64,000 nucleotides of DNA from Brassica napus (lineage: Eukaryota; Streptophyta; Magnoliopsida; Brassicales; Brassicaceae), in the NCBI RefSeq assembly GCF_020379485.1, contig NW_026016841.1:1-64000 (forward strand), given 5' to 3'. How positions within the stretch are numbered: the first letter of the stretch is position 1; each line of letters starts with the position of its first letter. Shown here one piece after another: positions 10,789 to 62,380 of this stretch. The position numbers were made by a program, and so were the translations under genes. A model generated the notes under the pieces. That model saw nothing but the letters and a program-made list of their open reading frames with translations. It was not told the DNA's origin and made no database searches.

Positions 10789-10839
10789 CTTAAGAAAGAA
10801 ACATCATCAATAAAAATATCAGATTCTATTAAAATACAT

Positions 10840-13020: not shown

Positions 13021-13075
13021 TTTCGCTGACGTGGACGCTCTATAGAGTCTCAAAAGTCTCTTTTATTAATAAGGA

Positions 13076-31176: not shown

Positions 31177-32196
31177 TGTGAGGTTTTCAGAGCACAGGCT
31201 GTGTGTGGGCGTGCTGGATCAACCTCAACAGGTTGGGACTGATTCTTGTTCAACAATGAAAGAGAATAAGAGGTTAATGGAAGAATAAGAGAATGGTGAG
31301 TGTGTATGAGAGATTAAGTGAGAGATTGAGAGAATAGAGATTGAGAACGAGATTGAAGTAACCAGAATCAAAGACTAGAGAGTTTAGAGAGACAAAGTAT
31401 CATAAGATTATGAAGGAGGAGGGGAAATCCCCCTCTCTCTCTTAGAGAGTTACAAACGCCCCTTAAGGGTCTTTAAGTAGGAAAATACAAGTTGTAACTC
31501 ATAAACCCTAATCTAAGGATAAGAGATGGACAGTGGGGATTGTCTGATTTGAAATGGACGTCTAGGATTGGTCTTGGGAGCTTTAGCAATCTGAGTAGTG
31601 GAGCCTGATTGGAGGAGAGAATACTTGGCTATGAATGCACCAACATTACACCTGAATCTGTCCATAGATCAATCCAGGTTCATAGTCCAACTTGCTTCTT
31701 CCTTTACAGCCAAGGACAGCCTGTCATTGGACCACACATATCACTATCACGTTCAGATATGTCCAAGACAGCTCCCTTTGACTCCTTCTTGCACACAACA
31801 TCTTCTTGATGCTCTTTTGATACACTTGCTAAGCCCGGACCTTGCACATGCTCCGGGGGTGTACAGACATTAGAGGAACCGTACACTTGTGCCCTATTAT
31901 TGCACAAACACCAAATGACTCCAAATGGTCGAGATAAAGTGTTTCGGGTCGTCTTCGTCTTTACCGGTCCGTACAGTCCGTACGGCCGTCCGTACGGACG
32001 GCCCTAACTTTCCACCATCGACTATTTCCTCCTAAACTCCTCCAATGTCCTCTACAGATCAGTCTAAGTCCCTCCTGGACTTATCTTCACAAGATAGATA
32101 CTTCAGGGCACTCCTGAAGCTTGATTGAACTCTTCTGGACATCTTCTAGAGCTTGCCCTATTAATGTACAAGCTCTATCTCCTCTTCAGTTCAACA
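31177..32196 (-). repeat. 3' LTR of the non-autonomous element
   Basis: On the element strand it begins TGTTGAACTGAAG and ends CTGAAAACCTCACA. It contains a palindromic GC-rich cluster of GTCCGTACgG motifs (31970-32003), also present in the other LTR. Confidence 0.93.
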
Positions 32197-34962
32197 CTCC
32201 CCCTCAAGCTTGACTCTAGGAGATCCTAAGTCAAGCTTGGAACTCTGAAGAGTCTCCCTCATTAAAAACCTTACAAGGAAAACCCATTGGGACAAAATCT
32301 TGCAAGGGAAAAAGAGTAGAGATCTCCAAACCCTAGGGATTGGCCATTGAGCCTTTGTGCCTTAGAACCAGTGTGGTTGGACACAAAGGACTCTTGATCG
32401 TGGCCTAAACAGGTGCAGCAACACTTCAAGGCTTGCGCACACAACACACCTCAGCTTCACCTCTTCATGGAACCGGTTTGGGACTCCCCCTCTCAACAAG
32501 CTTCATAGCCTTCTTAGAAAGGCAAGGATGTGACCGGTTCATCTTTAACCATCAGTGAGGCTGAGAAAGACTTCAAACTATGCTTGCCCTCTTAATAGAA
32601 CTGGTTTGGATCTCCCCCTCTCAACAGACTTCACAGCCATCTTAGAGAAGCTAGGAAATGACCAGAAACATCTTTAGTGAGGCTCAAGCAATGGTACCTG
32701 ATACATTATCCCAAAGGTGCATCAGTACTTATCAAGAAACCAAGATTGCATCACATCAATGCATCACATTCCAATCGAAACACTTTATCATATCAAGCTT
32801 AAACAATGAAATGATGAGTGAATTGAATTGAATTAAGTTTAAGGGACACTTCCCTTTTGTTTTGGTGAGGAGTGGCTGGATTGGAAAGTCACTTGAATCC
32901 CTCACACTAGGCATAGGCTTGCAACCTCTACGGACACATCAACTTGTTGGAAGACTGTATGGATCCTTCAGCTTGAATATTAGCCTTCATACACACCCAA
33001 CCTAGAATAGCTCCGGTTGATGTCTCTTGAATGTAGTCCTTGCAGCCCTTCTCTCTTGGCCATTACAACCTCTTCATGGCAACACCAACTTGTTGGATGA
33101 CTGAGTCGGTTCATCAGCTTCTCTCCTCAACCACCTCATATTGAAGCCGCATTGAGAAAGAGCCTTCTTCCTCACCCAGCCCAGACTGCTCTGAACAATC
33201 TCTTGCCTAGACACGCCACTACCAAGACCCGGTTGATGATCCGTTGATGAAGTCCTTGCAAAGATTTGATAATGGACCATGAAACTTGCTCATTAACACT
33301 CCCCCTCAAGCTTAACTCCGAGAATAGGTGAGGAGCTAAGCTTGTGTAAGGTGTAAGCAATTTCATGGCCTTTGGACCACCGGTCTTCATAGACTTTTGT
33401 GATGGCCTTGGTCTTGTGAGCTGCTCTCTTCCTTATACCAGGAACTAGGGTGTTTGAATCACCATAGAGAGTCCTCACAAGACAAGCTCTCATTCTATAA
33501 TAACCCATGCTACACTTCCTGTAGACTATGGACTGAACATGTCCTATGGTATTATACAATGGCATCCTCTCATTGCATAATCAATCACACTACACTTCCT
33601 GTAGATTATGGATTAATACATCCAGTGATGATTTGCAATGGAACTAGATCTATTGTCTTCACACTTTGGTTTGGCTTGTCACTGTATCACTTCTTTGTGT
33701 ACCTAACATCACCACAACTCAATGCAAGATCAGATCATCCCATTGGGACCAAACCAAGATCATCCATCCTGTTTGATCACCAATGCCCAACAATATATAA
33801 AACTTGAAACAGCCAAACAATCAAGGCACAATCAAGCATATAATTTTTTTTTTTAAGTTCTCTAAATGCAATGCAAGCTAACATCAGTCCATTTGCAATT
33901 TAGGCTCAGTTTTAAATTCATCAATACATGAATGCACAATCTTAAAGCATTAGCTATGTGAATGCAACAGGTTCAATCCATGAGAGCAGTATTAAAGCTA
34001 TGCACAACAGTTCCAATCAATACCAATGATGCAAGAAACTTAGACAGTTTCTAATTGATGCAAGACAATCAATGATGGATTAAACATAGGCAATAGCATC
34101 AGAGAACAATAGGATTGAACTTAGACAGAATGAGACATGCTTATGTATGCAAAACAGCTTTTCAAACATGATGCAAGCAGCAGAGACATTCTACTCAATT
34201 TTACAACACATTCATGATGATTTCAAGCTATGGCAATACACAAGACAATGCAATGAACAAGGCATGAGATCCTGGGATTTAAAACACTACTCAATGCATA
34301 CTAACCAATGCAACAGCAAAACAACTTCAGTACCATTATGCACGTAGCTTAGACATTCTACTAGATGCTACAATCATTAATGACACTTTAGTTATGGCAA
34401 TCACAACAAGATGATGCAAAACAGAATCCGCAGGACTTAACCACACCACACAACACAACCATAACATAAAGACACAAGCTTTAAACAAGGGAAGGAGGTT
34501 TAGCTTACAGCCAAGGAACCTGTGCTGGTTCCTTGAACCTCCAAGGCAATATGAATCATAAATGGACAGATCTGAGCTGTTGGTTTGAGAACCAACATCT
34601 CCTTCTTTGCCTGGCCTTTCTCCTTGAACCCACCATGCCAAAGACACCTCCTTTCACCATGTTTGAGTCGCCACCACAAGACACAAGTAGAAAGCTTTCT
34701 TCTTGAAAGGTTCTTCTTGGACATAGAATAGGAAAGGCTTGGACATGCTTCCAATGGCCTTATTTCTTCAGGACGGACATGAGAGAGTGTAGAACGACTA
34801 AGGACAGCTCCTGGACACCATGGATGAGCACATCTTCTTCTTGAAGAGGTTGAACAGCCGACTGGACCATGAAGCTTCTTCTTGGCTTGAAATGGCATGG
34901 GAGTGAGCTTGTGCTTGAGCGGAAGCTGGAACCAAGTTCTGATGAACCTGGCTCTGATACCA
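32197..34962 (-). other. non-coding interior of the non-autonomous element
   Basis: No retroelement protein motif was found in any frame. Purine-tract-like sites recur on the minus strand: next to the LTR (32197), and near 32483, 32617 and 33298. The last, with AAGCTTGAGGGGGAG, is nearly identical to the true tract. Part of the interior (33840-34400) is rich in CAATGCA phrases. The 34500-35042 minus frame runs across the LTR border and is not a gene. Confidence 0.7.
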
Positions 34963-35980
34963 TGTGAGGTTTTCAGAGCACAGGCTGTGTGTGGGCGTGC
35001 TGGATCAACCTCAACAGGTTGGGACTGATTCTTGTTCAACAATGAAAGAGAATAAGAGATTAATGGAAGAATAAGAGAATGGTGAGTGTGTATGAGAGAT
35101 TAAGTGAGAGATTGAGAGAATAGAGATTGAGAACGAGATTGAAGTAACCAGAATCAAAGACTAGAGAGTTTAGAGAGACAAAGTATCATAAGATTATGAA
35201 GGAGGAGGGGAAATCCCCCTCTCTCTCTTAGAGAGTTACAAACGCCCCTTAAGGGTCTTTAAGTAGGAAAATACAAGTTGTAACTCATAAACCCTAATCT
35301 AAGGATAAGAGATGGACAGTGGGGATTGTCTGGTTTGAAATGGACGTCTAGGATTGGTCTTGGGAGCTTTAGCAATCTGAGTAGTGGAGCCTGATTGGAG
35401 GAGAGAATACTTGGCTATGAATGCACCAACATTACACCTGAATCTGTCCATAGATCAGTCCAGGTTCATAGTCCAACTTGCTTCTTCCTTTACAGCCAAG
35501 GACAGCCTGTCATTGGACCACACATATCACTATCACGTTAAGATATGTCCAAAACAGCTCCCTTTGACTCCTTGCACACAGCATCTTCTTGATGCTCTTT
35601 TGATACCCTTGCTAAGCCCGGACCTTGCACATGCTCCAGGGGGTGTACAGACATTAGAGGAACCGTACACTTGTGCCATATTATTGCACAAACACCAAAT
35701 GACTCCAAATGGTTGAGATAAAGTGTTTCGGGTCGTCTTCGTCTGTACCGGTCCGTACAGTCCGTACGGCCGTCCGTACGGACGACCCTAACTTTGCACC
35801 ATCGACCATTTCCTCCTAAACTCCTCCAATGTCCTCTACAGATCAGTCTAAGTCCCTCCTGGACTTATCTTCACAAGATAGATACTTCAGGGCACTCCTG
35901 AAGCTTGATTGAACTCTTCTGGACATCTTCTAGAGCTTGCCCTATTAATGTACAAGCTCTATCTCCTCTTCAGTTCAATG
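34963..35980 (-). repeat. 5' LTR of the non-autonomous element
   Basis: It matches 31177-32196 almost base for base. Differences include GATTTGAA/GGTTTGAA, TTCAGATATGTCCAAGACAG/TTAAGATATGTCCAAAACAG and a 3-bp TTC indel near 35571. The primer-binding site is directly adjacent at 34949-34962. Confidence 0.93.
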
Positions 35981-43027: not shown

Positions 43028-43653
43028 CTAAGTAAGGTTGATTGCTTGTCCAGAGATATCTTCATATTCCGCAAAAATTCTTTTCAGTTTCTTTGCTGCC
43101 TTGATGTTTGCCAATGAGAAGAACAGAGAATCATCAGCAAATAATAGATGATTAACCGGAGGAGCTCTAATTGCTATCTTAATACCGATCAAAGATCGAT
43201 TCTCCATAGCTTTATTCATCATATGATAGAGAACTTCTGCGCATAATATGAAGAGATAGGGAGACAAAGGATCTCCCTGTCTGATGCCGCGCTGTGGTGT
43301 TATGTGTCCTTCCGGAGTTCCATTGATAATCACTGAGTATGAAACTGTTGAGATGCAGTTCATTATCCAGTTGATCCATTTAGCATCAAATCCCATATGC
43401 ATCATTTTTTTCTCCAAAAACCGCCACTCGAGCCTATTATAAGCTTTTGTAATATCTGTTTTCACAGCCATATATGAAGTAGCTTGCCTCTTTCTTGCCT
43501 TGAGACTGTGAAAAACTTTGTGTGCTATAACTATATTATTAGTTATGACACGCCCAGGAATGAAAGCATTCTGATTCTCAGAGATGATGTTGTTCAGATG
43601 CTGCTTCAGTCTGTTAACTAGAATCTTAGCGAAGATTTTATAAGCAACATTAC
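43028..43653 (-). pseudogene. LINE reverse transcriptase palm, downstream piece
   Basis: The translation includes KTDITKAYNRLEWRFLEKKM with the first catalytic aspartate, RGIRQGDPLSPYLFILCAEV and the active-site LLFADDSLFF. The segment upstream to 43653 continues the RT fingers (KIFAKILVNRLKQHLNNI is readable). The frame ends at a TAG at 43028-43030, after which RT continues in another frame, so the LINE is not functional. Confidence 0.9.
43649..43653. repeat. target duplication ATTAC, left copy
   Basis: ATTAC stands directly before TGATACGCCC. The second copy is at 55484-55488, directly after GGGCGTATCA. These mark the borders of the 11,830-bp insertion within the LINE. Confidence 0.95.
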
Positions 43654-44553
43654 TGATACGCCCTAAAATAGGGAAGGATCACTCGACCGGACTAAAGGGA
43701 TATGAACTCGCCAAAAGGGAGAACTGATGGATTGAACGGTGACACAATGGGTTGCGGATGGCCCAATGATACTACCAGACTTCAGTTGGTGCTTGATATG
43801 ACTCACAAGTCCACCAAAAGAAGGATTTCTAAACGTTGCCTGATATGACGCACAGGTCCAACGAATTAGAGGCTGTTTACTCGGAGATAACCTCACCAAG
43901 AAACAAAGAAGTGTTCTACAAAGAACAAATAGATAAACTCAAATAAAAGGGGAAAAAAGCTTATCTTATTTCGTGGCTCTTAGGCCCTATATATAGGATT
44001 ACAAGTTGTAGAAATCCAAAGAAGAATGTGCTAAAAACAAGACATGGAAACTAGAAATGAAGACTTTGACTAAAGACCGAAATTAATGATTTTTGTTGAA
44101 TTCTTTTTCCCATGCACGACCAAGACTTCCTTGCTGACTCCCTCTTGGCATTCTTGATGAGAATGGGCTTGAAATGGACTGAGGAAAGGTCTGGTCGAAT
44201 TTGGTGTAAAACCGACCCAAATTGAATTTGTTATGAATTTTTCTTTGGGCTGAAAAATGCTCATTTCGCCCAGCAACTAAACCAGCTCCATCTTCAGTGT
44301 CACTTAGCTCATTCAGCTCCAAGCTAGTATCACTTAGCTCACTCAGCTCATCTAGCTCATCTACTATCACTTCAGCTGGTTTCAGCTCAAGCATACTCTC
44401 TTTAGCTGGTTCCAGCTCGTCCTCAGTCTCATCAGCTGGTTTTAGATCAGTATCCTCACCATTAATCCATCCTGGTTTGTCTTTTGTTGAAGAATCATCT
44501 GGCTCAGCCATGGTCGCATCATCCTGGCCCGGGTCTATGATCCGAGGCGCATC
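43654..44553 (-). repeat. outer left LTR (minus orientation)
   Basis: About 900 bp, matching 44559-45459 and, inverted, 54584-55483, with only a few substitutions. On its own strand it starts GATGCGCCTCGG (the first T is lost) and ends GGGCGTATCA at 43654. Part of it (44511-44083) encodes the acidic tail of the 688-codon ORF. Confidence 0.93.
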
Positions 44554-44558
44554 TTTCT

Positions 44559-45459
44559 TAATACGCCCTAAAATAGGGAAGGATCACTCGACCGGACTAA
44601 AGGGATATGAACTCGCCAAAAAGGAGAACTGATGGATTGAACGGTGACACAATGGGTTGCGGATGGCCCAATGATACTACCAGACTTCAGTTGGTGCTTG
44701 ATATGACTCACAAGTCCACCAAAAGAAGGATTTCTAAACGTTGCCTGATATGACGCACAGGTCCAACGAATTAGAGGCTGTTTACTCGGAGATAACCTCA
44801 CCAAGAAACAAAGAAGTGTTCTACAAAGAACAAATAGATAAACTCAAATAAAAGGGGAAAAAGCTTCTCTTATTTCGTGGCTCTTAGGCCCTATATATAG
44901 GATTACAAGTTGTAGAAATCCAAAGAAGAATGTGCTAAAAACAAGACATGGAAACTAGAAATGAAGACTTTGACTAAAGACCGAAATTAATGATTTTTGT
45001 TGAATTCTTTTTCCCATGCACGACCAAGACTTCCTTGCTGACTCCCTCTTGGCATTCTTGATGAGAATGGGCTTGAAATGGACTGAGGAAAGGTCTGGTC
45101 GAATTTGGTGTAAAACCGACCCAAATTGAATTTGTTATGAATTTTTCTTTGGGCTGAAAAATGCTCATTTCGCCCAGCAACTAAACCAGCTCCATCTTCA
45201 GTGTCACTTAGCTCATTCAGCTCCAAGCTAGTATCACTTAGCTCACTCAGCTCATCTAGCTCATCTACTATCACTTCAGCTGGTTTCAGCTCAAGCATAC
45301 TCTCTTCAGCTGGTTCCAGCTCGTCCTCAGTCTCATCAGCTGGTTTTAGATCAGTATCCTCACCATTAATCCATCCTGGTTTGTCTTTTGTTGAAGAATC
45401 ATCTGGCTCAGCCATGGTCGCATCATCCTGGCCCGGGTCTATGATCCGAGGCGCATCAT
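44559..45459 (-). repeat. inner left LTR, 3' LTR of the minus-strand copy
   Basis: This LTR follows the polypurine tract (AAGAGGGAGGGAA on the minus strand, about 45472-45460). Its 3' end has lost the final CA and is joined by about 5-7 bases (TAAGAAA) to the start of the outer LTR, resembling a two-LTR circle junction. Confidence 0.92.
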
Positions 45460-47053
45460 TCCCTCCCTCTTGAAAAGGATTTGACCTCAAATCCATTTTA
45501 CCTGTATCAAAAGGAAATGAATCAGACAAAAAGAATTTAAAAATCATGTAAAATTTAGTGAAGGAAAATTTTGGAAAGAAACTTCCTTGGAGTTTTGAAG
45601 TTGGTTTCCTCGAGTACATGCATCTCCAAGTCTTAAACTGATAAGCACGATCTCTGCTTCTGTTCCTGACACCTCTTGGAGACTGATCCTGTTTATCCTG
45701 GACACTCAAAACAAACATTAAAATACCAGGATCATATGTACAAGACAAGTACTTGTTCAGATCATAAACCAAAGTTTCTTTCCCTAGAACATGTAGCACA
45801 CGTTTCAGATCATCATGAAGCCTATCAAAGTAAGTCTTGTACACCAGAATGGTGTCAGGGCACGTGATAGCACAGTTCCTAAAGAACAAATTCAAATCAT
45901 GCGCAAGTTTCTCAGATTTAGAACACAAAAGATTAAGTTCAAATTGAGAATTTCTTATCCAAGGCTCAGCATGTTTATCAAAGAAGGTGTTGTAAATCAG
46001 AATGTTTTCGAGGCATGAACTACCATAGAACATTTCCAAAACGTGCCTAACTTGATCAGATTCAGAACACAAAAGTTTTAGTTCAAGATCAGATTCAGAA
46101 TAAGAATGGACAGGTTTCAAAACAGAATCACCACAAAAATCTGTTTCAGCTTTATGTGAATTCTGTTCCAGCAATGTGCTAACCATAAAATCTTCCAAAG
46201 CATATGAGGATGCAAACAAAATTCCAGTGATCAGTTCATGTCCATAAGATCTCAGACTAAAGCTATTTTCTTTGAAGACAAATGAATCAAACGATTTTCT
46301 AGAGCAGAAAACTAGTTGTTGCAAATCAAGCTCAGATGACTTTTCAAGATGATCAAGACCAGAAAGTTTTATGTCATTGGAACTGACTTTATCAAACAGA
46401 TCAGGCAGAAAATTAATCAAATCAAGTTTCTCACAGTGCTCTTGAATGTATGTGGTCAAAGGCGTAGGAGTTGTGCCGGGATCAAAGCAAAGTTGGTTCT
46501 CCATGATGATGGATGTTATGCTTGGTGCTTCCGCTTCAAAGGTTGGACCAGGTTCGCCTTCCTCATCAAATATGGGACCTAGATCATCGTCCATGGGTCT
46601 CCTGGTGCCAAGAAGCAGTCCTTGATGTGAGTAGTCGAATGGTTCTTCCTTAAAATCCTGTGAAAATAGAACAAGACTACTCGGATGCTCCGGTTCAAAA
46701 CAGGTTAGTCCATTAGTCTCTTCATCATCAAACATAAAATCAGATTTTGGAGATGGAAGATCACATTCATCCTCACAAATGATCAAACTTTCAATCATCT
46801 CTTCATCATACTCATCAAAAATTGGTAAAGAATCTGAAAAATCTTTTTGATCTTCAAGGTTGTTTTCAGATTTACCTTTGGGTTTTTCATTGATGAATAA
46901 GGAAGGCTTAGCTACAGATGCACGTGTGGTTGTGCTCTTCTTTTGGATCTTGCTGACGTCCTTGAGGGCTTTCACCACACCCTCCACAAGGTTGTCACAA
47001 AACTCCCAGACTTCAAACTGACTGAAAAGCCTTCTTTGATCAGCTTCAAACAT
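44987..47053 (-). CDS. 688-codon ORF of a non-autonomous LTR element, minus-strand copy
   Basis: Intact frame from ATG 47053 to the stop at 44987, with a translation identical to the plus-strand copy at 52989-55055. The N-terminal part (MFEADQRRLFSQFEVWEFCD, then VEGVVKALKDVSKIQKK) is followed by long acidic stretches (FDEYDEEMIESLIICEDE). Repeated LCSESDQV/LCSKSEKL motifs lie near residues 335 and 385, both followed by a related hydrophobic segment. Residues from about 520 ([16 protein letters not shown]) match the end of the pol in this same insertion, and the last 157 residues are LTR-encoded. There is no zinc knuckle, protease, RT or integrase. Function unknown; possibly a gag-like or accessory protein. 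Confidence 0.8.
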   Translation of the reverse strand: MFEADQRRLFSQFEVWEFCDNLVEGVVKALKDVSKIQKKSTTTRASVAKPSLFINEKPKGKSENNLEDQKDFSDSLPIFDEYDEEMIESLIICEDECDLPSPKSDFMFDDEETNGLTCFEPEHPSSLVLFSQDFKEEPFDYSHQGLLLGTRRPMDDDLGPIFDEEGEPGPTFEAEAPSITSIIMENQLCFDPGTTPTPLTTYIQEHCEKLDLINFLPDLFDKVSSNDIKLSGLDHLEKSSELDLQQLVFCSRKSFDSFVFKENSFSLRSYGHELITGILFASSYALEDFMVSTLLEQNSHKAETDFCGDSVLKPVHSYSESDLELKLLCSESDQVRHVLEMFYGSSCLENILIYNTFFDKHAEPWIRNSQFELNLLCSKSEKLAHDLNLFFRNCAITCPDTILVYKTYFDRLHDDLKRVLHVLGKETLVYDLNKYLSCTYDPGILMFVLSVQDKQDQSPRGVRNRSRDRAYQFKTWRCMYSRKPTSKLQGSFFPKFSFTKFYMIFKFFLSDSFPFDTGKMDLRSNPFQEGGNDAPRIIDPGQDDATMAEPDDSSTKDKPGWINGEDTDLKPADETEDELEPAEESMLELKPAEVIVDELDELSELSDTSLELNELSDTEDGAGLVAGRNEHFSAQRKIHNKFNLGRFYTKFDQTFPQSISSPFSSRMPRGSQQGSLGRAWEKEFNKNH

Positions 47054-47559
47054 CTTAACCTGAAAGTTCTCAACACAAAAGGTTAACAGATAAAAATAAT
47101 CCTCACACTCTCAAGTGTTTGATCTCACCCACACAAGTGTTTCTCTCAGATTTTATGGTCACTCAAGAGTCTCCTCTCAAAGTTCTAAGAGAACAAATCA
47201 AATAACCCAATGGATTTCTCCAAGCAAGCAAGAGATGAACACAAGATAGAAAGATAAAGAGAATTGTTTTGAAATCCGTATTAACCACTCCAAGGCTGGA
47301 TTTCTCCTCAGCCAGCAGGATTTCTCTTCCACCACCTAGCCAAATAAATCAAACTTTTTTTTTTCTTTTCTCTTTTTTTTTGATAGATCTTTTTTTTTTT
47401 TTTTTTCTTTTCTTTTCTCTTTTTTTTTTTTAATAGAAGAATGGCGATAGGTAAGGTAGTGGCCCGGATTTGAGATAGAAAGATGAAGAAGAAGTGTTTA
47501 GAAATGAAAGATGAGAAAGATGGATAGATAGTACCGGTTGAGTGGCTCTGATACCAAGT
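47054..47559 (-). promoter_or_regulatory. leader and primer-binding site of the minus-strand copy
   Basis: The minus strand has TGGTATCAGAGCCACTCAAC just after the LTR end (about 47556-47537), the initiator-tRNA primer site. The leader then carries A-rich runs (T runs on the plus strand, 47350-47435) and the motif GAGAGTGTGAGGATTA before the ATG. It matches 52491-52988 of the other arm apart from run lengths. Confidence 0.88.
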
Positions 47560-48143
47560 TGATACGCCCAAAACGGGAAGGATGGCTTTGGCCGGGTGTT
47601 TGATATGAACCGAGAAGGCGATGGCACTTCTGGAACTGGAATGGAATGAATGGATCGTCAAGAGATGCGGAATGACTCTTGATATACCACGATCTAAGGC
47701 TAACCACCTAAGAAACGATGAAGGTGTGTTTGGCTAACCACCAAACGACACAAAGATGATTGGCTGACCACCAAATCAACAAGCTGGTTCAAACCGATGA
47801 ACTAGCTAAGAACTCTCTCTCTCACTCAGAGAAAAGAAGAATCGAAAATAAACAACCAAAATGAACTGATTTTATTCATCAAAGGGACTACATATTTATA
47901 CTACTTGTAGTCAAAGAGAATTAAAGAGAATTGTGGGAAAACAAGGCATAGAAAATAGACACATTGACTAGAATATTATTAATGAGTCAAAGACTCAGTC
48001 TTCCATGCAGATTAGTCAAAGATGACCATTCGGTCCACGTTCTGGTCAAGGAAACCCTTCGGCTACTGTCCAGGTTCATCCGAACCAGATGGATGCACGG
48101 GGTAAAGATAAGGACGCTTGCGGGACTGTCCGGATGATACCAC
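47560..48143 (-). repeat. diverged LTR (type B), partial
   Basis: It starts TGATACGCCCAAAACGGGAAGG on the plus strand, clearly related to but different from the 900-bp LTRs. It is the LTR next to the minus-strand primer site. It ends at a junction near 48130-48143 where a partial primer site (AGTGGTATCA on the minus strand) of the next LTR begins, so its U3 end is missing or shortened. Confidence 0.75.
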
Positions 48144-49173
48144 TTGATACGCCCCAAAAATAGGGAAGGATCACTCGACCGGATTTTGAGAAAAGATATG
48201 AACTCCAAGAGGAGAACTGATGGAATGAGGGGTCGCACAAAGGTTGCGGAGTGGCCTTTGATATTCCCGAACCAGATTGTTGCCGGATGTGACTCACCGG
48301 TCCAACAAAGAGGCAATCTTGAACCGTTGCTTGATATGACTCACAAGACCAACGGACAAGGGCGTTCGCTTGGAGCTAGCCACACCAAGAAAACTAGAAA
48401 AGTTCTAAACAAAGAACAAAGAGTAAAGACTCAAAAAGAAGTTGAAAGAAAATGGAATGATTTTATTGATAGAAGTGTTTACATATTTATACTACTTGAG
48501 GAATAGAAAGAGACATATGAATGTATTAAAGATAGACTTAGTAAATCGAATCTGACTAGAATTTTGAAAGACAATGTATTAAACTCTTAAATTCCAGATC
48601 TGGTCAAAGATGACTCTTCGGCTAACGTCCAGGTTCGTCTGAACCAAGTGGTTCCTTCGCGGTAAGGAGCAAAACGGGCGTGGCGCGTTCCGGACGGTCA
48701 GCCGGGTAAGGCTCATGCGCCAACTTGGTTCCAGCACGACCCAAGTCCTTGGACAGTTGTAGAATCCGTGCCTTAGAGAAATTTTGATCATCAAAATTCA
48801 AGAACTGATCATACTGGCCGGTTGATCCATCAGTACGTTCATCGGGACACTCGGCTCGGATCAGACGGACCAAAAGGGAAAGACTATGGTCTGTCTCGAT
48901 TTCCACTCGACCCAAGTGGGTTCCTGCTCGACCATCAGTCTTGGCTTGGCGAGTTGGTCGGGAAAGACGGGCTCCGGTACGGTCGGTTTGGTCATCTGGA
49001 CATGGTTCTAGCCTTAGTTCTTTTCCGGCTGCGTGCGGGTCGATCCGGTACACGGCTCGGTGTGTCTGTCTGGAACGGTCGTCTGCCTGAACCTCGGTTG
49101 GAATGATCTGATCGTCCTGTTCTCCATCCTGGCTTGGTTCCATGTGCTGATCCATGTACTGAGGCACATCATT
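48144..49173 (-). repeat. third LTR (type C), 3' LTR of the pol-bearing element
   Basis: On the plus strand it starts TGATACGCCCCAAAAATAGGG at 48145 and ends GAGGCACATCA at about 49173. A polypurine tract (AAGAGGGAGGGAA) adjoins on the pol side. The pol frame runs into it for more than 500 bases, to the stop at 48622. Beyond its left end, the minus strand continues with AGTGGTATCA, the beginning of a primer site. Confidence 0.85.
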
Positions 49174-51363
49174 CCCTCCCTCTTGAAAAGGATTTGTCCA
49201 CAAATCTGGATCATCTGCAAGAAAAGGAGATAAATCAGAAACATTAAAGCTTGAGGAAATGTCATACTTACCTTGCAAGTCAAGCTGATAAGCATTGTCA
49301 TGGATTTTCTTAAGAATCTGGAAAGGACCATCGACCCTTGGCATGAGTTTGGACTTTCTTTCTTCCGGAAATCGTTCCTTCCTAAGATGAACCCAAACAA
49401 GATCACCCTCCTCAAAAATGACCTTCTTTTTCTTCTTGTTTGCCTTCCTTGTGTACACCTCGGTCTTGGCTTCAATGTTCGCACGAACTGTCTCATGCAA
49501 CTTCTTGATTGTATCAGCTTTCCTCTTGCCATCTGTACTAACTCTTTCACTTAAAGGCAAAGGCAAAAGATCAAGTGGAGATAAGGGATTGAAACCATAA
49601 ACAACCTCAAAAGGAGAGAATTTAGTAGAAGAATGCAATGAATGATTGTAAGCGAATTCAACATGAGGCAAACATTCTTCCCAAAGTCTAAGATTTTTCT
49701 TAACCAATGACCTAAGCAATGCAGACAAGGTTCGGTTCACAACTTCAGTTTGTCCATCAGTTTGAGGATGACAAGTGGTGGAAAACATCAATCTAGTTCC
49801 TAGTTTAGACCATAACGTTTTCCAGAAATAACTAAGGAACTTAGCATCACGATCAGAAACAATAGTCTTAGGCATTCCGTGCAATCTAACAATTTCCCTA
49901 AAGAATAGATCAGCAACTTGCACAGCATCATCAGTCTTATGACAAGGTATGAAATGAGCCATTTTAGAGAATCTATCGACCACAACAAAGATAGAGTCTC
50001 GACCAGATTTAGACCTAGGCAATCCAAGCACAAAATCCATAGATATGTCTACCCAAGGATGAGAAGGAATGGGAAGAGCAGAATACAAACCTTGGTTTTT
50101 AGATTTAGACTTGGCTTTCTTGCAAACCACACATCGGCCACAGACCCGTTCCACATCCTTCATCAAGCTCGGCCAATAGAAGTGCTCATTCACCACCTTG
50201 TGCGTTTTCTTGACTCCAAAGTGTCCCATAAGGCCTCCTCCATGAGCTTCCCTGAGAAACAATTCCCTCAAAGAACATTGGGGCACACACAAACGGTTAT
50301 CAAAGAATAAAAATCCAGAAGCTTGATAGTACTTTCCATAGGCCGTTTTTGAACACTTTATGAACACTTCTTTGAAATCCGAATCAGTTGCATACAGATC
50401 TTTGATAAATTCAAAACCAAGCAACTTTGTTTCAAGAGCTGAAAGAAGAACATACCTCCTGGACAAGGCATCAGCCACCACATTGTCCTTACCTTGTTTG
50501 TATTTGATCACATAAGGAAAGGTCTCAATGAACTCGACCCAACGGGCATGTCTCTTGTTCAGCTTCTGCTGGCCCTTAAGGTGTTTCAAGGACTGATGAT
50601 CAGTGTGGATCACAAACTCTTTTGGCCAAAGATAATGCTGCCATGTCTGAAGAGCCCTCACCAAAGCATACAACTCCTTGTCATAAGTGGGGTAGTTGAG
50701 CGTGGCTCCTCCAAGTTTCTCACTGAAGTAAGCAATGGGTTTCCAATCCTGCATGAGAACAGCACCAATACCAACACCCGAAGCATCACATTCGATCTCA
50801 AAAGTCTTAGAGAAATCAGGTAGAGTAAGCAAAGGAGCATGAGTTAACTTCCCTTTTAGAATCTGGAATGCCTCCTCTTGGGCTTGTTCCCACTTGAACC
50901 CCACGTTCTTTTTGATTACCTCAGTAAGCGGAGCGGCTATGGTACTGAAATCCTGGACGAACCGTCTGTAGAAGCCGGCTAGGCCATGGAAACTTCTTAC
51001 TTCGCCCACGGTCGTTGGACTCGGCCAATCTCGGATGGCTTTGATCTTTTCCTCGTCCACTCTGAGCCCATCAGCACCTACAACAAAGCCTAAGAACACC
51101 ACGTGATCTGTTCCAAAAGAGCATTTTTCAAGATTTGCAAAAAGTTTTTCTTTTCGTAGACATCAAGAACAGATTTCAAGTGTATCTTATGATCATCAAG
51201 ATTCTTGCTGTAGATGAGAATATCATCAAAGTAAACAACCACGAAATGGCCAATAAAAGACCTTAAGATATGATTCATCAAACGCATAAAAGTGCTAGGT
51301 GCATTAGTAAGACCAAATGGCATGACAAGCCACTCATACAATCCTAGTTTCGTCTTAAATGCA
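48622..51363 (-). pseudogene. Ty3/gypsy chromovirus pol: RT end, RNase H, integrase, LTR-encoded tail
   Basis: The piece starts inside RT ([33 protein letters not shown]). After a frameshift near 51150 it continues as an 826-codon frame: [20 protein letters not shown], RNase H ([34 protein letters not shown]), the zinc finger [20 protein letters not shown], and the integrase core ([39 protein letters not shown]). The end is [20 protein letters not shown] and [11 protein letters not shown], and the frame then runs into the LTR. Pol running into the 3' LTR is known from CRM-type chromoviruses, so I infer that group. Gag, protease and the start of RT are missing. Confidence 0.9.
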
Positions 51364-51844
51364 GTTTCGTCTTAAATGGTATCAGAGCCACTTTGGCTGG
51401 TTTGTTTTCTTTCATCTCTCATCTTCTCATCTCTCCACGTTTTTTTCTTTTCTTATTTCTTGGATCCGGGCTGTTCCTTTACTCCCTTGTGATCGCCTAT
51501 TATAAAAAAAAAAAAAAAAAAAAATCGATAAAAAAAAAAAAAAAGTTTTGGCGTGAATCACTTCTGAAGAGAAATCCAGGGGGAGTGGTGGAAGAGAAAC
51601 CCTGCTGGCTGAAGAGAAATCCAGCCTTAGGACAGTTAAGGCGGATCCATATCAAAAATCTCTTCATCTTACCTTCTCTTTTCTTTTTCTCACAAAGTTT
51701 GTTTTGGGTTTTGATTGCTGAATTTTGACTGCCTATCATCCTTTGAACCAGTGAAAGAACTCTGAGTGACCATCTAAAAATCGTGAGCTAAACACTTTGA
51801 GAGTGTGAGGATTTTTATTTGCTAACTTTGTTAAGTGTTTCAGG
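51364..51844 (+). promoter_or_regulatory. central junction, primer site and leader of the gag-bearing piece
   Basis: At the centre, minus-strand RT sequence meets a plus-strand primer site (TGGTATCAGAGCCA, 51377-51390). Just before it, a 17-bp string (GCAGTTTCGTCTTAAAT) repeats the adjacent RT sequence, i.e. a templated filler. The leader contains A runs (51504-51543) and GAGAGTGTGAGGATTTTT, shared with the leader of the 688-codon ORF. Confidence 0.8.
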
Positions 51845-52372
51845 ATGTTTGGACTTCTCAAGAAATCAAAACCACTACAAGATGATGTCTACTTTCCTTT
51901 TAAAACTATTGTTGAAAAGAAGCAATTGATTTTTGACAAGAGACAGTTTGCTTCTAATGAATTTGATTTTGTGCAGAAACAAAGGAAGAGAGAAAACAGG
52001 TCCAATGATGAGAAGTGGGTCAGAAGTGGTGATCGTCTTTTCACCAAAACCAAGAGAAGCAACCGTGTAGTGCTTGATCAAAACGAGCTTCAAACTTATG
52101 CTAGTTTGGAGAAGATGTTGCATAAGGCAATTCATGCTATCCGACAGCTCAAAAGGAAGGGAAACACCAACACTTCTTCGGCACCAAAACAGCAATGTAA
52201 GTCTCCTTATCTTTCAAATTCTGATTTGAAAACTAATGAGATTTCTTTTGATAAAAGCAAAGCTGTGAAACCCACAAGCAAAGCTCATTCCACCAGGTGC
52301 TTCAAATGCCATAGGACCGGTCATTATGCTAACAAGTGTGAGTCATATCAAGCACCAACTGAAGTCTGGTAG
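51845..52372 (+). pseudogene. gag fragment with zinc knuckle, truncated by an LTR junction
   Basis: The frame starts at an ATG after GTGTTTCAGG (MFGLLKKSKPLQDD) and is strongly basic. A hydrophobic-basic stretch reads LEKMLHKAIHAIRQLKRKG. Near the end a zinc knuckle CFKCHRTGHYANKC is complete. The frame then runs into LTR sequence at about 52337 through the shared string TGTGAGTCATATCAAGC and stops. Gypsy gag normally goes on to protease and RT, so this is a piece cut at the knuckle. It would coat the RNA in the virus-like particle. Confidence 0.85.
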
Positions 52373-52490
52373 TATCATTGGGCCATCCGCAACCCATTGT
52401 GTCACCGTTCAATCCATCAGTTCTCCCTTTTGGCGAGTTCATATCCCTTTAGTCCGGTCGAGTGATCCTTCCCTATTTTAGGGCGTATCA
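52337..52490 (+). repeat. partial LTR (last 154 bp) before the plus-strand copy
   Basis: It matches the last 154 bp of the 900-bp LTR, ending GGGCGTATCA at 52490. The primer site TGGTATCAGAGCCA follows at 52493-52506. It supplies the U5 end of an LTR whose left part is replaced by gag. Confidence 0.92.
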
Positions 52491-52988
52491 AGTGGTATCA
52501 GAGCCACTCAACCGGTACTATCTATCCATCTTTCTCATCTTTCATTTCTAAACACTTCTTCTTCATCTTTCTATCTCAAATCCGGGCCACTACCTTACCT
52601 ATCGCCATTCTTCTATAAAAAAAAAAAAGAGAAAAGAAAAGAAAAAAAAAAAGATCTATCAAATAAAAAGAGAAAAGAAAAAAAAAAGTTTGATTTATTT
52701 GGCTAGGTGGTGGAAGAGAAATCCTGCTGGCTGAGGAGAAATCCAGCCTTGGAGTGGTTAATACGGATTTCAAAACAATTCTCTTTATCTTTCTATCTTG
52801 TGTTCATCTCTTGCTTGCTTGGAGAAATCCATTGGGTTATTTGATTTGTTCTCTTAGAACTTTGAGAGGAGACTCTTGAGTGACCATAAAATCTGAGAGA
52901 AACACTTGTGTGGGTGAGATCAAACACTTGAGAGTGTGAGGATTATTTTTATCTGTTAACCTTTTGTGTTGAGAACTTTCAGGTTAAG
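52491..52988 (+). promoter_or_regulatory. primer site and leader of the plus-strand copy
   Basis: The primer site is followed by TCAACCGGTACTATCTATCC and a leader with A-rich runs (52616-52690). It matches the minus-strand leader at 47054-47559 in inverted orientation. The ORF begins at 52989 after AACTTTCAGGTTAAG. Confidence 0.88.
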
Positions 52989-55055
52989 ATGTTTGAAGCT
53001 GATCAAAGAAGGCTTTTCAGTCAGTTTGAAGTCTGGGAGTTTTGTGACAACCTTGTGGAGGGTGTGGTGAAAGCCCTCAAGGACGTCAGCAAGATCCAAA
53101 AGAAGAGCACAACCACACGTGCATCTGTAGCTAAGCCTTCCTTATTCATCAATGAAAAACCCAAAGGTAAATCTGAAAACAACCTTGAAGATCAAAAAGA
53201 TTTTTCAGATTCTTTACCAATTTTTGATGAGTATGATGAAGAGATGATTGAAAGTTTGATCATTTGTGAGGATGAATGTGATCTTCCATCTCCAAAATCT
53301 GATTTTATGTTTGATGATGAAGAGACTAATGGACTAACCTGTTTTGAACCGGAGCATCCGAGTAGTCTTGTTCTATTTTCACAGGATTTTAAGGAAGAAC
53401 CATTCGACTACTCACATCAAGGACTGCTTCTTGGCACCAGGAGACCCATGGACGATGATCTAGGTCCCATATTTGATGAGGAAGGCGAACCTGGTCCAAC
53501 CTTTGAAGCGGAAGCACCAAGCATAACATCCATCATCATGGAGAACCAACTTTGCTTTGATCCCGGCACAACTCCTACGCCTTTGACCACATACATTCAA
53601 GAGCACTGTGAGAAACTTGATTTGATTAATTTTCTGCCTGATCTGTTTGATAAAGTCAGTTCCAATGACATAAAACTTTCTGGTCTTGATCATCTTGAAA
53701 AGTCATCTGAGCTTGATTTGCAACAACTAGTTTTCTGCTCTAGAAAATCGTTTGATTCATTTGTCTTCAAAGAAAATAGCTTTAGTCTGAGATCTTATGG
53801 ACATGAACTGATCACTGGAATTTTGTTTGCATCCTCATATGCTTTGGAAGATTTTATGGTTAGCACATTGCTGGAACAGAATTCACATAAAGCTGAAACA
53901 GATTTTTGTGGTGATTCTGTTTTGAAACCTGTCCATTCTTATTCTGAATCTGATCTTGAACTAAAACTTTTGTGTTCTGAATCTGATCAAGTTAGGCACG
54001 TTTTGGAAATGTTCTATGGTAGTTCATGCCTCGAAAACATTCTGATTTACAACACCTTCTTTGATAAACATGCTGAGCCTTGGATAAGAAATTCTCAATT
54101 TGAACTTAATCTTTTGTGTTCTAAATCTGAGAAACTTGCGCATGATTTGAATTTGTTCTTTAGGAACTGTGCTATCACGTGCCCTGACACCATTCTGGTG
54201 TACAAGACTTACTTTGATAGGCTTCATGATGATCTGAAACGTGTGCTACATGTTCTAGGGAAAGAAACTTTGGTTTATGATCTGAACAAGTACTTGTCTT
54301 GTACATATGATCCTGGTATTTTAATGTTTGTTTTGAGTGTCCAGGATAAACAGGATCAGTCTCCAAGAGGTGTCAGGAACAGAAGCAGAGATCGTGCTTA
54401 TCAGTTTAAGACTTGGAGATGCATGTACTCGAGGAAACCAACTTCAAAACTCCAAGGAAGTTTCTTTCCAAAATTTTCCTTCACTAAATTTTACATGATT
54501 TTTAAATTCTTTTTGTCTGATTCATTTCCTTTTGATACAGGTAAAATGGATTTGAGGTCAAATCCTTTTCAAGAGGGAGGGAATGATGCGCCTCGGATCA
54601 TAGACCCGGGCCAGGATGATGCGACCATGGCTGAGCCAGATGATTCTTCAACAAAAGACAAACCAGGATGGATTAATGGTGAGGATACTGATCTAAAACC
54701 AGCTGATGAGACTGAGGACGAGCTGGAACCAGCTGAAGAGAGTATGCTTGAGCTGAAACCAGCTGAAGTGATAGTAGATGAGCTAGATGAGCTGAGTGAG
54801 CTAAGTGATACTAGCTTGGAGCTGAATGAGCTAAGTGACACTGAAGATGGAGCTGGTTTAGTTGCTGGGCGAAATGAGCATTTTTCAGCCCAAAGAAAAA
54901 TTCATAACAAATTCAATTTGGGTCGGTTTTACACCAAATTCGACCAGACCTTTCCTCAGTCCATTTCAAGCCCATTCTCATCAAGAATGCCAAGAGGGAG
55001 TCAGCAAGGAAGTCTTGGTCGTGCATGGGAAAAAGAATTCAACAAAAATCATTAA
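52989..55055 (+). CDS. 688-codon ORF of a non-autonomous LTR element, plus-strand copy
   Basis: The frame is intact and encodes the same 688 residues as the minus-strand copy. It starts after a leader homologous to that of the gag piece, in the position of gag. Codons 1-531 lie inside the element and codons 532-688 lie in the 3' LTR (from 54584). The internal part ends with YMIFKFFLSDSFPFDTGK and then [15 protein letters not shown], the hallmark end of the neighbouring pol. The LTR-encoded tail is acidic with repeated ELKPAE and ELSDT units, then SSPFSSRMPRGSQQGS. It is probably a fusion of an unrelated ORF to the pol end. I infer that it is conserved because it or its RNA has a use; I do not know the function. 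Confidence 0.8.
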   Translation: MFEADQRRLFSQFEVWEFCDNLVEGVVKALKDVSKIQKKSTTTRASVAKPSLFINEKPKGKSENNLEDQKDFSDSLPIFDEYDEEMIESLIICEDECDLPSPKSDFMFDDEETNGLTCFEPEHPSSLVLFSQDFKEEPFDYSHQGLLLGTRRPMDDDLGPIFDEEGEPGPTFEAEAPSITSIIMENQLCFDPGTTPTPLTTYIQEHCEKLDLINFLPDLFDKVSSNDIKLSGLDHLEKSSELDLQQLVFCSRKSFDSFVFKENSFSLRSYGHELITGILFASSYALEDFMVSTLLEQNSHKAETDFCGDSVLKPVHSYSESDLELKLLCSESDQVRHVLEMFYGSSCLENILIYNTFFDKHAEPWIRNSQFELNLLCSKSEKLAHDLNLFFRNCAITCPDTILVYKTYFDRLHDDLKRVLHVLGKETLVYDLNKYLSCTYDPGILMFVLSVQDKQDQSPRGVRNRSRDRAYQFKTWRCMYSRKPTSKLQGSFFPKFSFTKFYMIFKFFLSDSFPFDTGKMDLRSNPFQEGGNDAPRIIDPGQDDATMAEPDDSSTKDKPGWINGEDTDLKPADETEDELEPAEESMLELKPAEVIVDELDELSELSDTSLELNELSDTEDGAGLVAGRNEHFSAQRKIHNKFNLGRFYTKFDQTFPQSISSPFSSRMPRGSQQGSLGRAWEKEFNKNH

Positions 55056-55483
55056 TTTCGGTCTTTAGTCAAAGTCTTCATTTCTAGTTTCCATGTCTTG
55101 TTTTTAGCACATTCTTCTTTGGATTTCTACAACTTGTAATCCTATATATAGGGCCTAAGAGCCACGAAATAAGATAAGCTTTTTCCCCTTTTATTTGAGT
55201 TTATCTATTTGTTCTTTGTAGAACACTTCTTTGTTTCTTGGTGAGGTTATCTCCGAGTAAACAGCCTCTAATTCGTTGGACCTGTGCGTCATATCAGGCA
55301 ACGTTTAGAAATCCTTCTTTTGGTGGACTTGTGAGTCATATCAAGCACCAACTGAAGTCTGGTAGTATCATTGGGCCATCCGCAACCCATTGTGTCACCG
55401 TTCAATCCATCAGTTCTCCCTTTTGGCGAGTTCATATCCCTTTAGTCCGGTCGAGTGATCCTTCCCTATTTTAGGGCGTATCA
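54584..55483 (+). repeat. outer right LTR (plus orientation)
   Basis: A complete 900-bp LTR with inverted ends TGATGCGCC...GGGCGTATCA. The polypurine tract AAGAGGGAGGGAA lies at 54571-54583. A TATA-like CCTATATATAGGGCC is at about 55140-55155. It is flanked on the right by the ATTAC target copy. Confidence 0.95.
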
Positions 55484-56167
55484 ATTACATAACGCAATAG
55501 GTCTGAACTCTTTCATACCAGTTGGCGGGTACACCTTTGGGATAAGGCACAGGTTTGTGTGATTATGTGTTGTATCCAGACCATCCCCTTCAAAGAAAGA
55601 TGATACCTCTTGCATCAGATCATCTTTAATATCTTCCCAAAGCTTTTGATAGAAAGCTGCTGAGAAGCCATCAGGTCCCGGTGTTCGGTTCGGTCCTGTA
55701 TCAAAGACTGCTTCTCTAACTTCATCTTCTGTTACTCTCCTGATAAGGTCTTGATTCATATCATCAGTAACACGCTTCTCAAAACCTTGAAATATACTCT
55801 CATAGAGCTGTTGGTTAGTAGGAGACGATGTATATAAACTTTGCAAATACTTAATCGCTACATTAGAGATGTCGTTTTGACCTCTGAAGATAACTCCATC
55901 ATCATCTTGTATTGTAGTGAGAGTATTACGAATCCTTTTTGCCTTAGTGATCGCATGAAAATAGCTGGTGTTCCTATCACCAGATCTCAGCCACATTACT
56001 CTGCTCTTTTGTTTCCAATAGATCTCTTCCTCAAGGTAGGCCTGATGTAATTGATATTTAATTTCATTTTGCTCCTGTGTAGTAACACTGGCCGTTACAA
56101 CGGCCTGATCCAGTTGCCTTCTTAATGACTCAATTTTCTCAGCAGCATTGGTTTTGTTTTGTCTTTT
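55484..56167 (-). pseudogene. LINE linker and reverse transcriptase fingers, upstream piece
   Basis: The first five bases are the right ATTAC copy. The minus-strand frame from 55996 reads WLRSGDRNTSYFHAITKAKR, then PNRTPGPDGFSAAFYQKLWE and MKEFRPIALCN, the start of the plant L1 RT domain. The remainder to 56167 is the linker after endonuclease, in a shifted frame. The RT frame resumes on the other side of the insertion at 43653. Confidence 0.9.
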
Positions 56168-60848: not shown

Positions 60849-60975
60849 CCAGGAAGTCGTCTGGAAGGAAGTCGTCTGGAAGACTTCCTGGAAGTCGTCT
60901 GGAAGACTTCCTGGAAGTCGTCTGGAAGACTTCCTGGAAGTCGCCTGGAAGACTTCCTGGAAGTCGTCTAGCGCA
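60840..60975 (+). repeat. 23-bp tandem array of the AAGTCGTC palindrome
   Basis: The unit CTGGAAGTCGTCTGGAAGACTTC is repeated about five times, with one CGCC variant near 60940. The units are themselves palindromic (GAAGACTTC, GGAAGTCGTC), so the array could form hairpins. The reading frame across it is an artefact. Confidence 0.93.
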
Positions 60976-62380
60976 TTATATTTTAGACGACTAACAGGTA
61001 AGTCGTCCTAGAGGTCTTTCAGATCTGAAAAACCTGCATATCAAATTCAGATCTTAAAAACAGAGAAAATGAGTGGAATATTAGATAAATCTACCTTTAT
61101 AGAACACACAAAAATACATATTTAAAATTAATAGATCAACCTTTAAATGAGTGGAAGATGAGAACTATCTGATTAAAAACATGCAAAAAAGATAGATTAC
61201 TGAGAAAGACATGAGACAAAACTGAAAAATTCATATAAAATTTGGTGTTTTCAAGTCAAAGAAATTAGAGTGGGTTTGGAGAGTTTTAGTTTGGAAAAAA
61301 GTAAGAAATTTATACAATAGGAAGTTACCAAATGAAGAAAAATTAGACATAAAAACTTACCAACTCAGATCTGTTATGAAAGGGAGACTTTGTCAGAAGA
61401 CTTCCAGGACTCGACTTTCTGGAAGACTTCCTGGAAGTCGTCTAGCGCATTATATTTTAGACGACTAACAGGTAAGTCGTCCCAAAAGTCTTCCAGATCT
61501 GAAAAAAACCTGCATATAAAAAAACGTTCAAATAGCTGAAAAACAGAGAAAATGAGTGGAAGATTAGATAAATCTACCTATATATAACACACAAAAATAG
61601 CCTAAAATTAATAGATCTGCGTTTAAATGAGTGGAAGATGAGAACCATCTGATTAAAAACCTGCAAAAAAAAGGATAGATTAGTGAGAAAGACATGAGAC
61701 AAAACTGAAAAATTCATATAAAGTTTGATGTTTTCAAGTCAAAGAGACTAGAGTGGGTTTGGAGAGTTTTAGTTTGGGAAAAAAGTAAGAACTTTATACA
61801 ACATGAAGTTACCAAATGAAGAAAAATCAGACATAAAAACTTACCAAAACGCTCAGATCTGTTATGAAAGGGAGACTTCGTCAGAAGACTTCCAGGAATG
61901 AAGTCGTCTGGAAGACTTCCTGGTAGTTGTCTAGAGCATATATTTTAGACGACTAACAGGTAAGTCGTCCCATAAGTCTTCCAGATCTGAAAAACCTGCA
62001 TATCCAAATCCAGATCTGAAAAGTCTGCATATCCAAAAATGTTCAAATGACTTAAAAACAGAGAAAATGAGTGGAAGATTAGATAAATCTATCTTTATAG
62101 AACATATGAAAATACATATCTAAAATTAATAGATATACCTTTAAATGAGTGGAAGATGAGAATCATGTGATGAAAAACCAGCAAAAACAAGATAAATTAG
62201 TGAGAAAGACATGAGACAAAAACAATAAATTGATATAAACCTTAGTGTTTATAAGTTCAAAGAGATTAGAGAGAGGTTGAAGAGTTTTAGAATGATGAAC
62301 ATTACATTTTTGTTGCAGCCATTTGAAGAGGAGAGAGAATGTGGTAAATTTTTCTTTATATAGGGAGACAAAAAAATCCA
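60976..62380. repeat. about 480-bp tandem repeat, three copies
   Basis: The anchor TTTAGACGACTAACAGGTAAGTCGTCC recurs at 60982, 61456 and 61944, spacing about 474 and 488 bp. Each unit then has AGATCTGAAAAACCTGCATAT, AGAAAATGAGTGGAaGATTAGATAAATCTACC, GAGAAAGACATGAGACAAAACTGAAAAATTCATATAAA and GAGACTtCGTCAGAAGACTTCC. The last unit ends differently, near 62330, with a pyrimidine-rich leader on the minus strand. Confidence 0.88.
62354..62363 (-). promoter_or_regulatory. TATA-like box on the minus strand at the repeat edge
   Basis: The minus strand reads CTATATAAAG followed by AAAAATTTACCACATTCTCTC and an ATG near 62326 (ATGGCTGCAACAAAAATG, then a stop). It looks like a core promoter and leader remaining from a mobile element gene. 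No coding region follows. Confidence 0.4.

What the first reader, a model, noticed from the sequence alone, without database searches (positions are those of the whole stretch)
43654..55483. An 11.8-kb insertion ending in inverted LTR termini with a single ATTAC target duplication
A normal LTR element has LTRs in direct orientation. Here both outer ends are the U5 end of the same LTR, pointing outward, and a perfect 5-bp duplication in the host LINE shows one integration event. The best reading is two retroelement cDNAs joined at their 5' sides (head to head) and integrated through two U5 ends. A nested-insertion history would need to erase all intermediate target duplications.
Basis: partly seen in the sequence, partly recalled or inferred. 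Interest (0 to 1): 0.93.

Follow-up and report, generated by a model that had tools for sequence, protein, structure and literature searches.

The report
Chimeric retrotransposon inserted by two U5 ends
In this plant genome, DNA copies of three different retrotransposon families were spliced into one 11.8-kb molecule with two identical "tail" ends facing outward, and it appears to have entered the chromosome in a single integration step, which shows how faulty reverse transcription and end-joining can build large inverted insertions.

Summary
The insert is 43654-55483. Both outer ends are the U5 end of the same 900-bp LTR, facing outward, with a perfect ATTAC duplication; the host LINE joined with one ATTAC gives a 399-aa open frame. 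In 21 other F-containing loci with both ends read (20 distinct insertions), each has a 5-bp duplication and one U3 plus one U5 end; the window alone is U5/U5. "Two cDNAs head to head" is incomplete: the insert is a mosaic of three families, F, X and an RNaseH/integrase-coding family (Auto), with five joints: two microhomology switches (2 and 3 nt), one swap inside a 16-nt primer-binding-site identity, one LTR-LTR joint of the length expected from unprocessed cDNA ends, and a central inverted joint with a 16-bp templated duplication ending at PBS nucleotide 1. The same genome holds direct-orientation complexes with one duplication, which support the mechanism. Template-switch complexes with one TSD are published; my searches found no inverted U5/U5 version. 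Not shown: reads, the empty allele, whether the centre was joined before or after integration. New variant of a known kind.

The parts
43649..43653 (.). target-site duplication ATTAC, left copy
43654..44554 (-). LTR_A of family F, extra outer LTR; its U5 end is the left terminus
44546..44568 (-). LTR_B/LTR_A joint: same length as a blunt joint of unprocessed ends (CA-AG-AA-TG), with 2 substitutions
   Evidence: unmutated joints of this kind at L047/L048
44559..45458 (-). LTR_B, 3' LTR of the left F unit
45459..47556 (-). F internal region, PBS to PPT, with a 688-aa ORF (Pfam run on the right-arm copy only: no match)
47541..47556 (-). switch X to F within 16 nt of shared PBS sequence
47560..48136 (-). 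family X LTR, 5'-truncated (577 of 870 bp)
48135..48136 (-). switch Auto to X, 2-nt microhomology CA after 8 nt of Auto PBS
   Evidence: read by eye
48135..51367 (-). Auto family: end of RT, RNaseH, integrase, PPT, complete 1027-bp LTR (48145-49171), first 8 nt of PBS
51346..51378 (+). central head-to-head joint: 16-bp direct duplication (51346-51361 and 51363-51378) including 9-nt filler 51368-51376
   Evidence: spanned only by the window among 40 scored
51377..52339 (+). family X from PBS nucleotide 1 into a gag-like ORF with a zinc-knuckle pattern (by eye; no Pfam match)
52337..52339 (+). switch X to F, 3-nt microhomology TGT
52337..52490 (+). last 154 nt of an F LTR (R/U5 part)
52491..54583 (+). 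F internal region, right arm
54584..55483 (+). LTR_C, 3' LTR of the right F unit; its U5 end is the right terminus
55484..55488 (.). target-site duplication ATTAC, right copy

Best explanation
A single integrase-mediated insertion of a chimeric double-stranded cDNA whose two ends were both F U5 ends. Inferred steps: (1) F, X and Auto RNAs were copied together. (2) The right unit (X PBS-gag, then F U5-PBS-internal-LTR) and the left unit (Auto RT-to-LTR plus 8 nt of PBS, then X LTR, PBS, F internal, LTR) arose by strand switches at 2-3 nt microhomologies and at the shared PBS. (3) Another F LTR was end-joined to the left unit before 3' processing, so LTR_B keeps its AG. (4) The units were joined by their inner ends, with a templated filler as in polymerase-theta-like end joining or a reverse-transcriptase switch; the X side starts at PBS nucleotide 1, where a minus strand that had not made its second jump would end. 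(5) Integrase processed the two outer U5 ends and made a 5-bp staggered cut. Shown: anatomy, joints, TSD, empty-site frame. Inferred: order of steps, enzymes, co-packaging.
For: Perfect TSD, and LINE frame restored with one copy. 21 other F-containing loci with both ends read (20 distinct insertions) all have a 5-bp TSD. Joint anatomy against parent copies. LTR haplotypes A, B and C differ at two family polymorphisms. Same genome: F-AG-X heterodimer with one TSD CTTCG (L017, same insertion in L018); F-G-F and F-H-F complexes with one TSD each (L039+L045 AAAGG; L043+L046+L053 AGAAT); X internal region behind an F-type U5 end, swapped at the PBS (L010); U5-U3 joints that keep unprocessed nucleotides, 6 pattern hits at 5 loci against 0 in the control. 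F arms nearly free of private substitutions, 0 of 2055 (left) and 2 of 2062 (right) columns, so the insertion looks young.
Against: No reads; unplaced contig; one example only. Directly inverted joints were not found elsewhere: U3-U3 exact pattern 0 hits, PBS-PBS 0 hits. The U5-U5 joint scan, the empty-site scan and the genome searches for the 52337 and LTR_B/LTR_A joints did not complete. The central joint does not tell whether it formed before or after integration. Its filler also resembles an F-type U5 end at 9 of 12 positions (CGTCTTAAATGG against CGTATCAAGTGG), so a worn U5 end is a weaker alternative to the exact 16-of-16 templated copy. The LTR_B/LTR_A joint carries substitutions exactly at its CA and TG, which blunt joining alone does not explain.
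Confidence: 0.72

Rival explanations
1. Two-molecule (trans) integration: integrase paired the U5 ends of two separate cDNA molecules and inserted each by one end at one target. This left a broken chromosome with two free cDNA ends, which end joining with templated filler then sealed at the centre.
For: Only U5 ends touch the host; the central joint looks like double-strand-break repair (9-nt filler within a 16-bp duplication). One step explains both the U5/U5 ends and the central joint. In-vitro two-donor integration of retroviral DNA is established knowledge (recalled).
Against: Other joints in this genome (F-AG-X, X-like ACT-AA, triple LTR AGAA) keep nucleotides that processing would remove, so joining before processing does occur here. 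Sequence alone does not separate the two orders.
Confidence: 0.25
2. Stepwise history: ordinary insertions at or near one site, followed by inversion, deletion or gene conversion, gave the present form; the ATTAC match is coincidence or a remnant of the first insertion.
For: Post-insertion recombination is the commoner origin of complex elements: Table 1 of PMC1950507 lists 20 recombinant against 2 template-switching complexes in about 7 Mb of Triticeae.
Against: No internal LTR end abuts host DNA and I saw no internal TSD; a U5 end at exactly the TSD on both sides needs a base-exact event; chance TSD about 1/1024; LINE frame intact. Joints lie at PBS positions and microhomologies, not at long homologies.
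Confidence: 0.08
3. Assembly artefact: collapsed or chimeric reads joined in repeats.
For: Unplaced 70-kb contig; arms nearly identical over 2.9 kb; no second copy of the centre found.
Against: The two outer flanks belong to one LINE and join in frame with one TSD copy. A missed-adapter palindrome would repeat the flank. The arms' LTRs differ at family polymorphisms.
Confidence: 0.1
4. Fold-back (palindromic) cDNA: one strand snapped back and copied itself.
For: The internal parts of the arms differ only by one substitution and two A-run length changes, all in an A-rich stretch.
Against: Inner parts of the arms are different families; LTR_B and LTR_C differ at a family polymorphism. F copies are so alike (1-24 differences in 2059 columns among 15 loci) that arm identity needs no self-copying.
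Confidence: 0.02

Closest known systems
Template-switching complex LTR retrotransposon insertions (Sabot and Schulman 2007, PMC1950507; abstract and the whole main section read)
   Same: Several element bodies in one insertion with one 5-bp TSD, explained there by abnormal template switching between co-packaged RNAs. L039+L045 and L043+L046+L053 resemble this form, with mixed families.
   Different: Those have three direct-orientation LTRs and ordinary outer ends. The window is inverted, has U5/U5 ends, three families and an end-joined LTR.
2-LTR circle junction type end-joining of unprocessed cDNA (recalled for retroviruses and plant eccDNA)
   Same: LTR_B/LTR_A joint has the length of CA-AG-AA-TG; L047/L048 (AGAA) and L051 (ACTAA) are unmutated examples.
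   Different: Here the joint lies within an integrated linear insertion.
Retroviral circles with an inverted segment (Shoemaker et al. 1980; only the title seen, in the reference list of PMC12789967)
   Same: Inverted retroviral DNA arising around the integration step.
   Different: Circular, unintegrated; autointegration origin (recalled). The window is a linear insertion with a TSD.
Tandem retrotransposon arrays (Cassandra, PMC7215508, passages read)
   Same: Concatenated elements, template switching offered as one origin.
   Different: Tandem; the passages I read describe no inverted insertion.
mini-Tnt1 chimeric elements (PMC2923131, passages read)
   Same: Experimental support for template switching between plant LTR element RNAs, with 5-bp TSDs.
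   Different: The passages describe single elements, none inverted.

Membership tests
Template-switching complex LTR insertion | one TSD flanking the whole complex | tested here: met
   ATTAC both sides, LINE frame restored
Template-switching complex LTR insertion | outermost LTRs highly alike | tested here: met
   A against C: 1 substitution in compared columns, plus a 1-nt indel and A's altered start
Template-switching complex LTR insertion | two complete core sequences in one direction with a shared internal LTR | tested here: not met
   cores inverted; partial Auto and X pieces between them
Ordinary LTR retrotransposon insertion | one U3 and one U5 outer end, direct LTRs | tested here: not met
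   TGATAC...GTATCA
Integrase-mediated insertion | TG..CA ends plus a TSD of the family's length | tested here: met
   5-bp TSD in 21 of 21 other F-containing loci with both ends read
Ty3/gypsy (Auto family) | RT-RNaseH before integrase | tested here: met
   Pfam RT_RNaseH, Integrase_H2C2, rve in that order; RT is truncated in the window
2-LTR type end joint (LTR_B/LTR_A) | unprocessed U5 and U3 ends ligated | tested here: inconclusive
   same length as expected, two substitutions
Polymerase-theta-like end joining at the centre | templated insertion next to a microhomology | tested here: inconclusive
   exact 16-bp duplicate of nearby Auto sequence with 9-nt filler; filler also 9 of 12 like a U5 end
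Polymerase-theta-like end joining at the centre | dependence on polymerase theta | not testable with these tools
   needs mutants

The most novel reading that the evidence does not exclude
Natural two-molecule integration: a plant integrase synapsed the U5 ends of two different chimeric cDNAs and integrated them in trans at one target, and the cell sealed the resulting gapped chromosome by templated end joining. This would make integrase a source of chromosome breaks and of long inverted repeats.
Probability: 0.25. Interest if true: 0.75.

Novelty: new variant of a known kind. Interest (0 to 1): 0.55.

Why it matters
It shows in one young, well-preserved insertion that LTR retrotransposon integration need not use one U3 and one U5 end, and that strand switching between families, end joining of unprocessed cDNA and integration can combine in one event. 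Annotation methods that expect direct LTRs would be likely to miss such insertions. The 2.9-kb inverted repeat of a recently active family could also produce hairpin RNA against that family (inference, no expression data).

Tried and rejected
Fold-back palindrome and tandem duplication of LTR_B: rejected by differing inner segments and by LTR haplotypes. Nested insertion: disfavoured, no internal TSD seen. My first TSD script printed noTSD for all 15 F loci because I had set the LTR start 3 bp too far in; one search corrects it. The automatic breakpoint script stopped early at joint 48135 because of a homopolymer indel; that joint was read by eye. Rows that align from inside the filler made me ask whether the filler is a worn U5 end; one search shows 9 of 12 positions alike, against an exact 16-mer copy of Auto, so I keep the templated reading. 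Paper searches returned nothing. Searches showed no inverted U5/U5 LTR insertion in their listings (the best 12 to 25 rows each); many subscription papers are not held, so this is not proof of absence. Dating from LTR pairs was not attempted because A, B and C come from different templates.

Unanswered (not completed): genome searches with the 52337 joint and with the LTR_B/LTR_A joint, the U5-U5 scan and the LINE empty-site scan. Uniqueness is therefore shown only for the centre and the 48135 joint, within the capped candidate lists.
Full report
Check. The insert 43654-55483 is bounded by ATTAC on both sides, with U5 ends facing outward. The host is a LINE in minus orientation: the left flanking ORF matches Pfam RVT_1, and 600 bp of each flank joined with a single ATTAC read through as 399 aa, with two copies only 211 aa.

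Anatomy. Three related families with the same primer-binding site (TGGTATCAGAGCC; assignment to initiator tRNA-Met is recalled) contribute. F: 900-bp LTR, about 3.9 kb, a 688-aa ORF without Pfam match, so non-autonomous as seen here. X: 870-bp LTR, about 2.9 kb, gag-like ORF with a zinc-knuckle pattern seen by eye. Auto: 1027-bp LTR, RNaseH and integrase domains. The right unit, on the plus strand, is X from PBS nucleotide 1 through gag (51377-52339), F U5 part (52337-52490), F internal and LTR_C. The left unit, on the minus strand, is Auto from RT through its 3' LTR and 8 nt of PBS (51367-48135), truncated X LTR (48136-47560), F internal and LTR_B, then an additional LTR_A ending at 43654.

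Joints. X to F at 52337: 3 nt shared (TGT). Auto to X at 48135: 2 nt shared (CA). X to F at 47541-47556: 16 nt of PBS shared. LTR_B to LTR_A: GGGCGTATTAAGAAAGATGCGCC, the same length as the joint expected from unprocessed ends, GGGCGTATCAAGAATGATGCGCC, with two substitutions. Centre: 9-nt filler CGTCTTAAA that completes a second copy of the 16-mer AGTTTCGTCTTAAATG (51346-51361 and 51363-51378; the 16-mer occurs once in each of the three Auto loci held), followed by X at PBS nucleotide 1. Against this: the filler plus TGG is like an F-type U5 end at 9 of 12 positions, which is why several rows align from 51368; I prefer the exact 16-mer copy. PBS nucleotide 1 is where a minus-strand cDNA would end before the second strand transfer (retroviral reverse-transcription model, recalled), so the right unit looks like a molecule that never made that transfer.

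Templates. LTRs A, B and C differ at two positions that are polymorphic among 30 F LTRs from 15 loci: A=(A,T), B=(G,G), C=(G,T). So the three LTRs were not copied from one another without recombination. The internal parts of the arms differ by one substitution and two A-run length changes, all in an A-rich stretch (4 columns, all in that stretch, in the family alignment). Other F loci differ from each other by 1-24 of 2059 columns (15 loci), so near-identity of the arms is no evidence for self-copying. Private substitutions are 0 of 2055 columns in the left F internal region and 2 of 2062 in the right (against 15 loci), 5 of 3217 in Auto (against two copies), 3 of 572 and 7 of 934 in the X pieces (8 and 6 copies): the insertion looks young.

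Other copies. I read 23 further F loci: L017-L031 (15 loci: the 14 places where one search listed two LTR hits about 3 kb apart, and C2745) and L037-L044 (8 of the 10 places where one search listed one LTR hit), so not a random sample. 16 are simple elements with a 5-bp TSD and one is a solo LTR with a TSD; L037 and L041 are cut by the stretch fetched; L017 and L018 are the same F-AG-X heterodimer with one TSD CTTCG (an unplaced contig and a chromosome-size contig); L039+L045 is F LTR-G-G LTR-F with AAAGG; L043+L046+L053 is F LTR-H-H LTR-F with AGAAT. G and H are my labels for further related families. So 21 loci with both ends read (18 in the list, plus L018, L039+L045 and L043+L046+L053; 20 distinct insertions) have TSDs and U3/U5 ends; only the window is U5/U5. 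One X locus (L010) has an F-type U5 end in front of the X internal region, a swap at the PBS. A genome-wide exact scan for U5-N(0-15)-U3 joints gave 6 hits and 0 in the reversed-pattern control: two at one C294 locus (LTR-AGAA-LTR-AGAA-LTR), C379 and C2745 (F-AG-X, one insertion), C422:19.8M (X LTR-ACTTGAAA-G), C422:39.3M (ACTAA, X-like). AG and ACT are the nucleotides between U5 and PBS, which integrase processing would remove, so these were joined before processing. Inverted joints were scanned too: U3-U3 0 hits, PBS-PBS 0 hits; the U5-U5 scan did not complete. For the C294, C422:19.8M and C422:39.3M loci I did not establish both outer ends, so TSDs there are unknown.

Mechanism. Aberrant strand transfers among co-copied F, X and Auto RNAs, end joining of unprocessed ends, an inverted join at the centre, and one integration through two U5 ends explain the features, except why the LTR_B/LTR_A joint is altered exactly at CA and TG. 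The LTR ends of F are similar inverted repeats (TGATGCGCC at U3, TGATACGCC at U5), so two U5 ends are plausible integrase substrates. Whether the centre was joined before integration (my preference, because joining before processing is seen elsewhere in this genome) or after a two-molecule integration cannot be told from sequence.

Known work. Sabot and Schulman 2007 (PMC1950507, main text read) describe template-switching complexes with one TSD and three direct LTRs: 2 in about 7 Mb of Triticeae, 1 in rice, 1 in maize, none in Arabidopsis. PMC7215508, PMC2923131, PMC5668417, PMC12786077, PMC12312487 and PMC12789967 were consulted by passages only; the passages shown describe no inverted U5/U5 LTR insertion (the head-to-head pair in PMC12312487 is a VANDAL21 DNA transposon).

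Species.

Noticed in passing
31177-35978: Another LTR-like pair: direct repeats of about 1 kb (31177-32194 and 34963-35978, 98.3% identical).
   Followed up: no
60925-62290: Tandem repeat with a period near 480-500 bp, about three copies.
   Followed up: no
6640-16780: AT-rich diverged repeats in two blocks.
   Followed up: no
10839-11458: Inverted repeat, 211-bp arms, 98% complementary, 198 bp apart; MITE-like (guess).
   Followed up: no
L047 1501-1523 and L048 1501-1523: Three LTRs in direct tandem joined twice by AGAA, as expected from unprocessed cDNA ends joined head to tail.
   Followed up: partly
L017 658-7427 (same insertion in L018): F and X elements joined head to tail by AG inside one CTTCG duplication.
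   Followed up: yes
L010 about 1471-1570: X internal region behind an F-type U5 end: a 5' LTR swap at the PBS.
   Followed up: no
44546-44568: The two substitutions in the LTR_B/LTR_A joint fall exactly on the CA and TG that integrase needs; unexplained.
   Followed up: no
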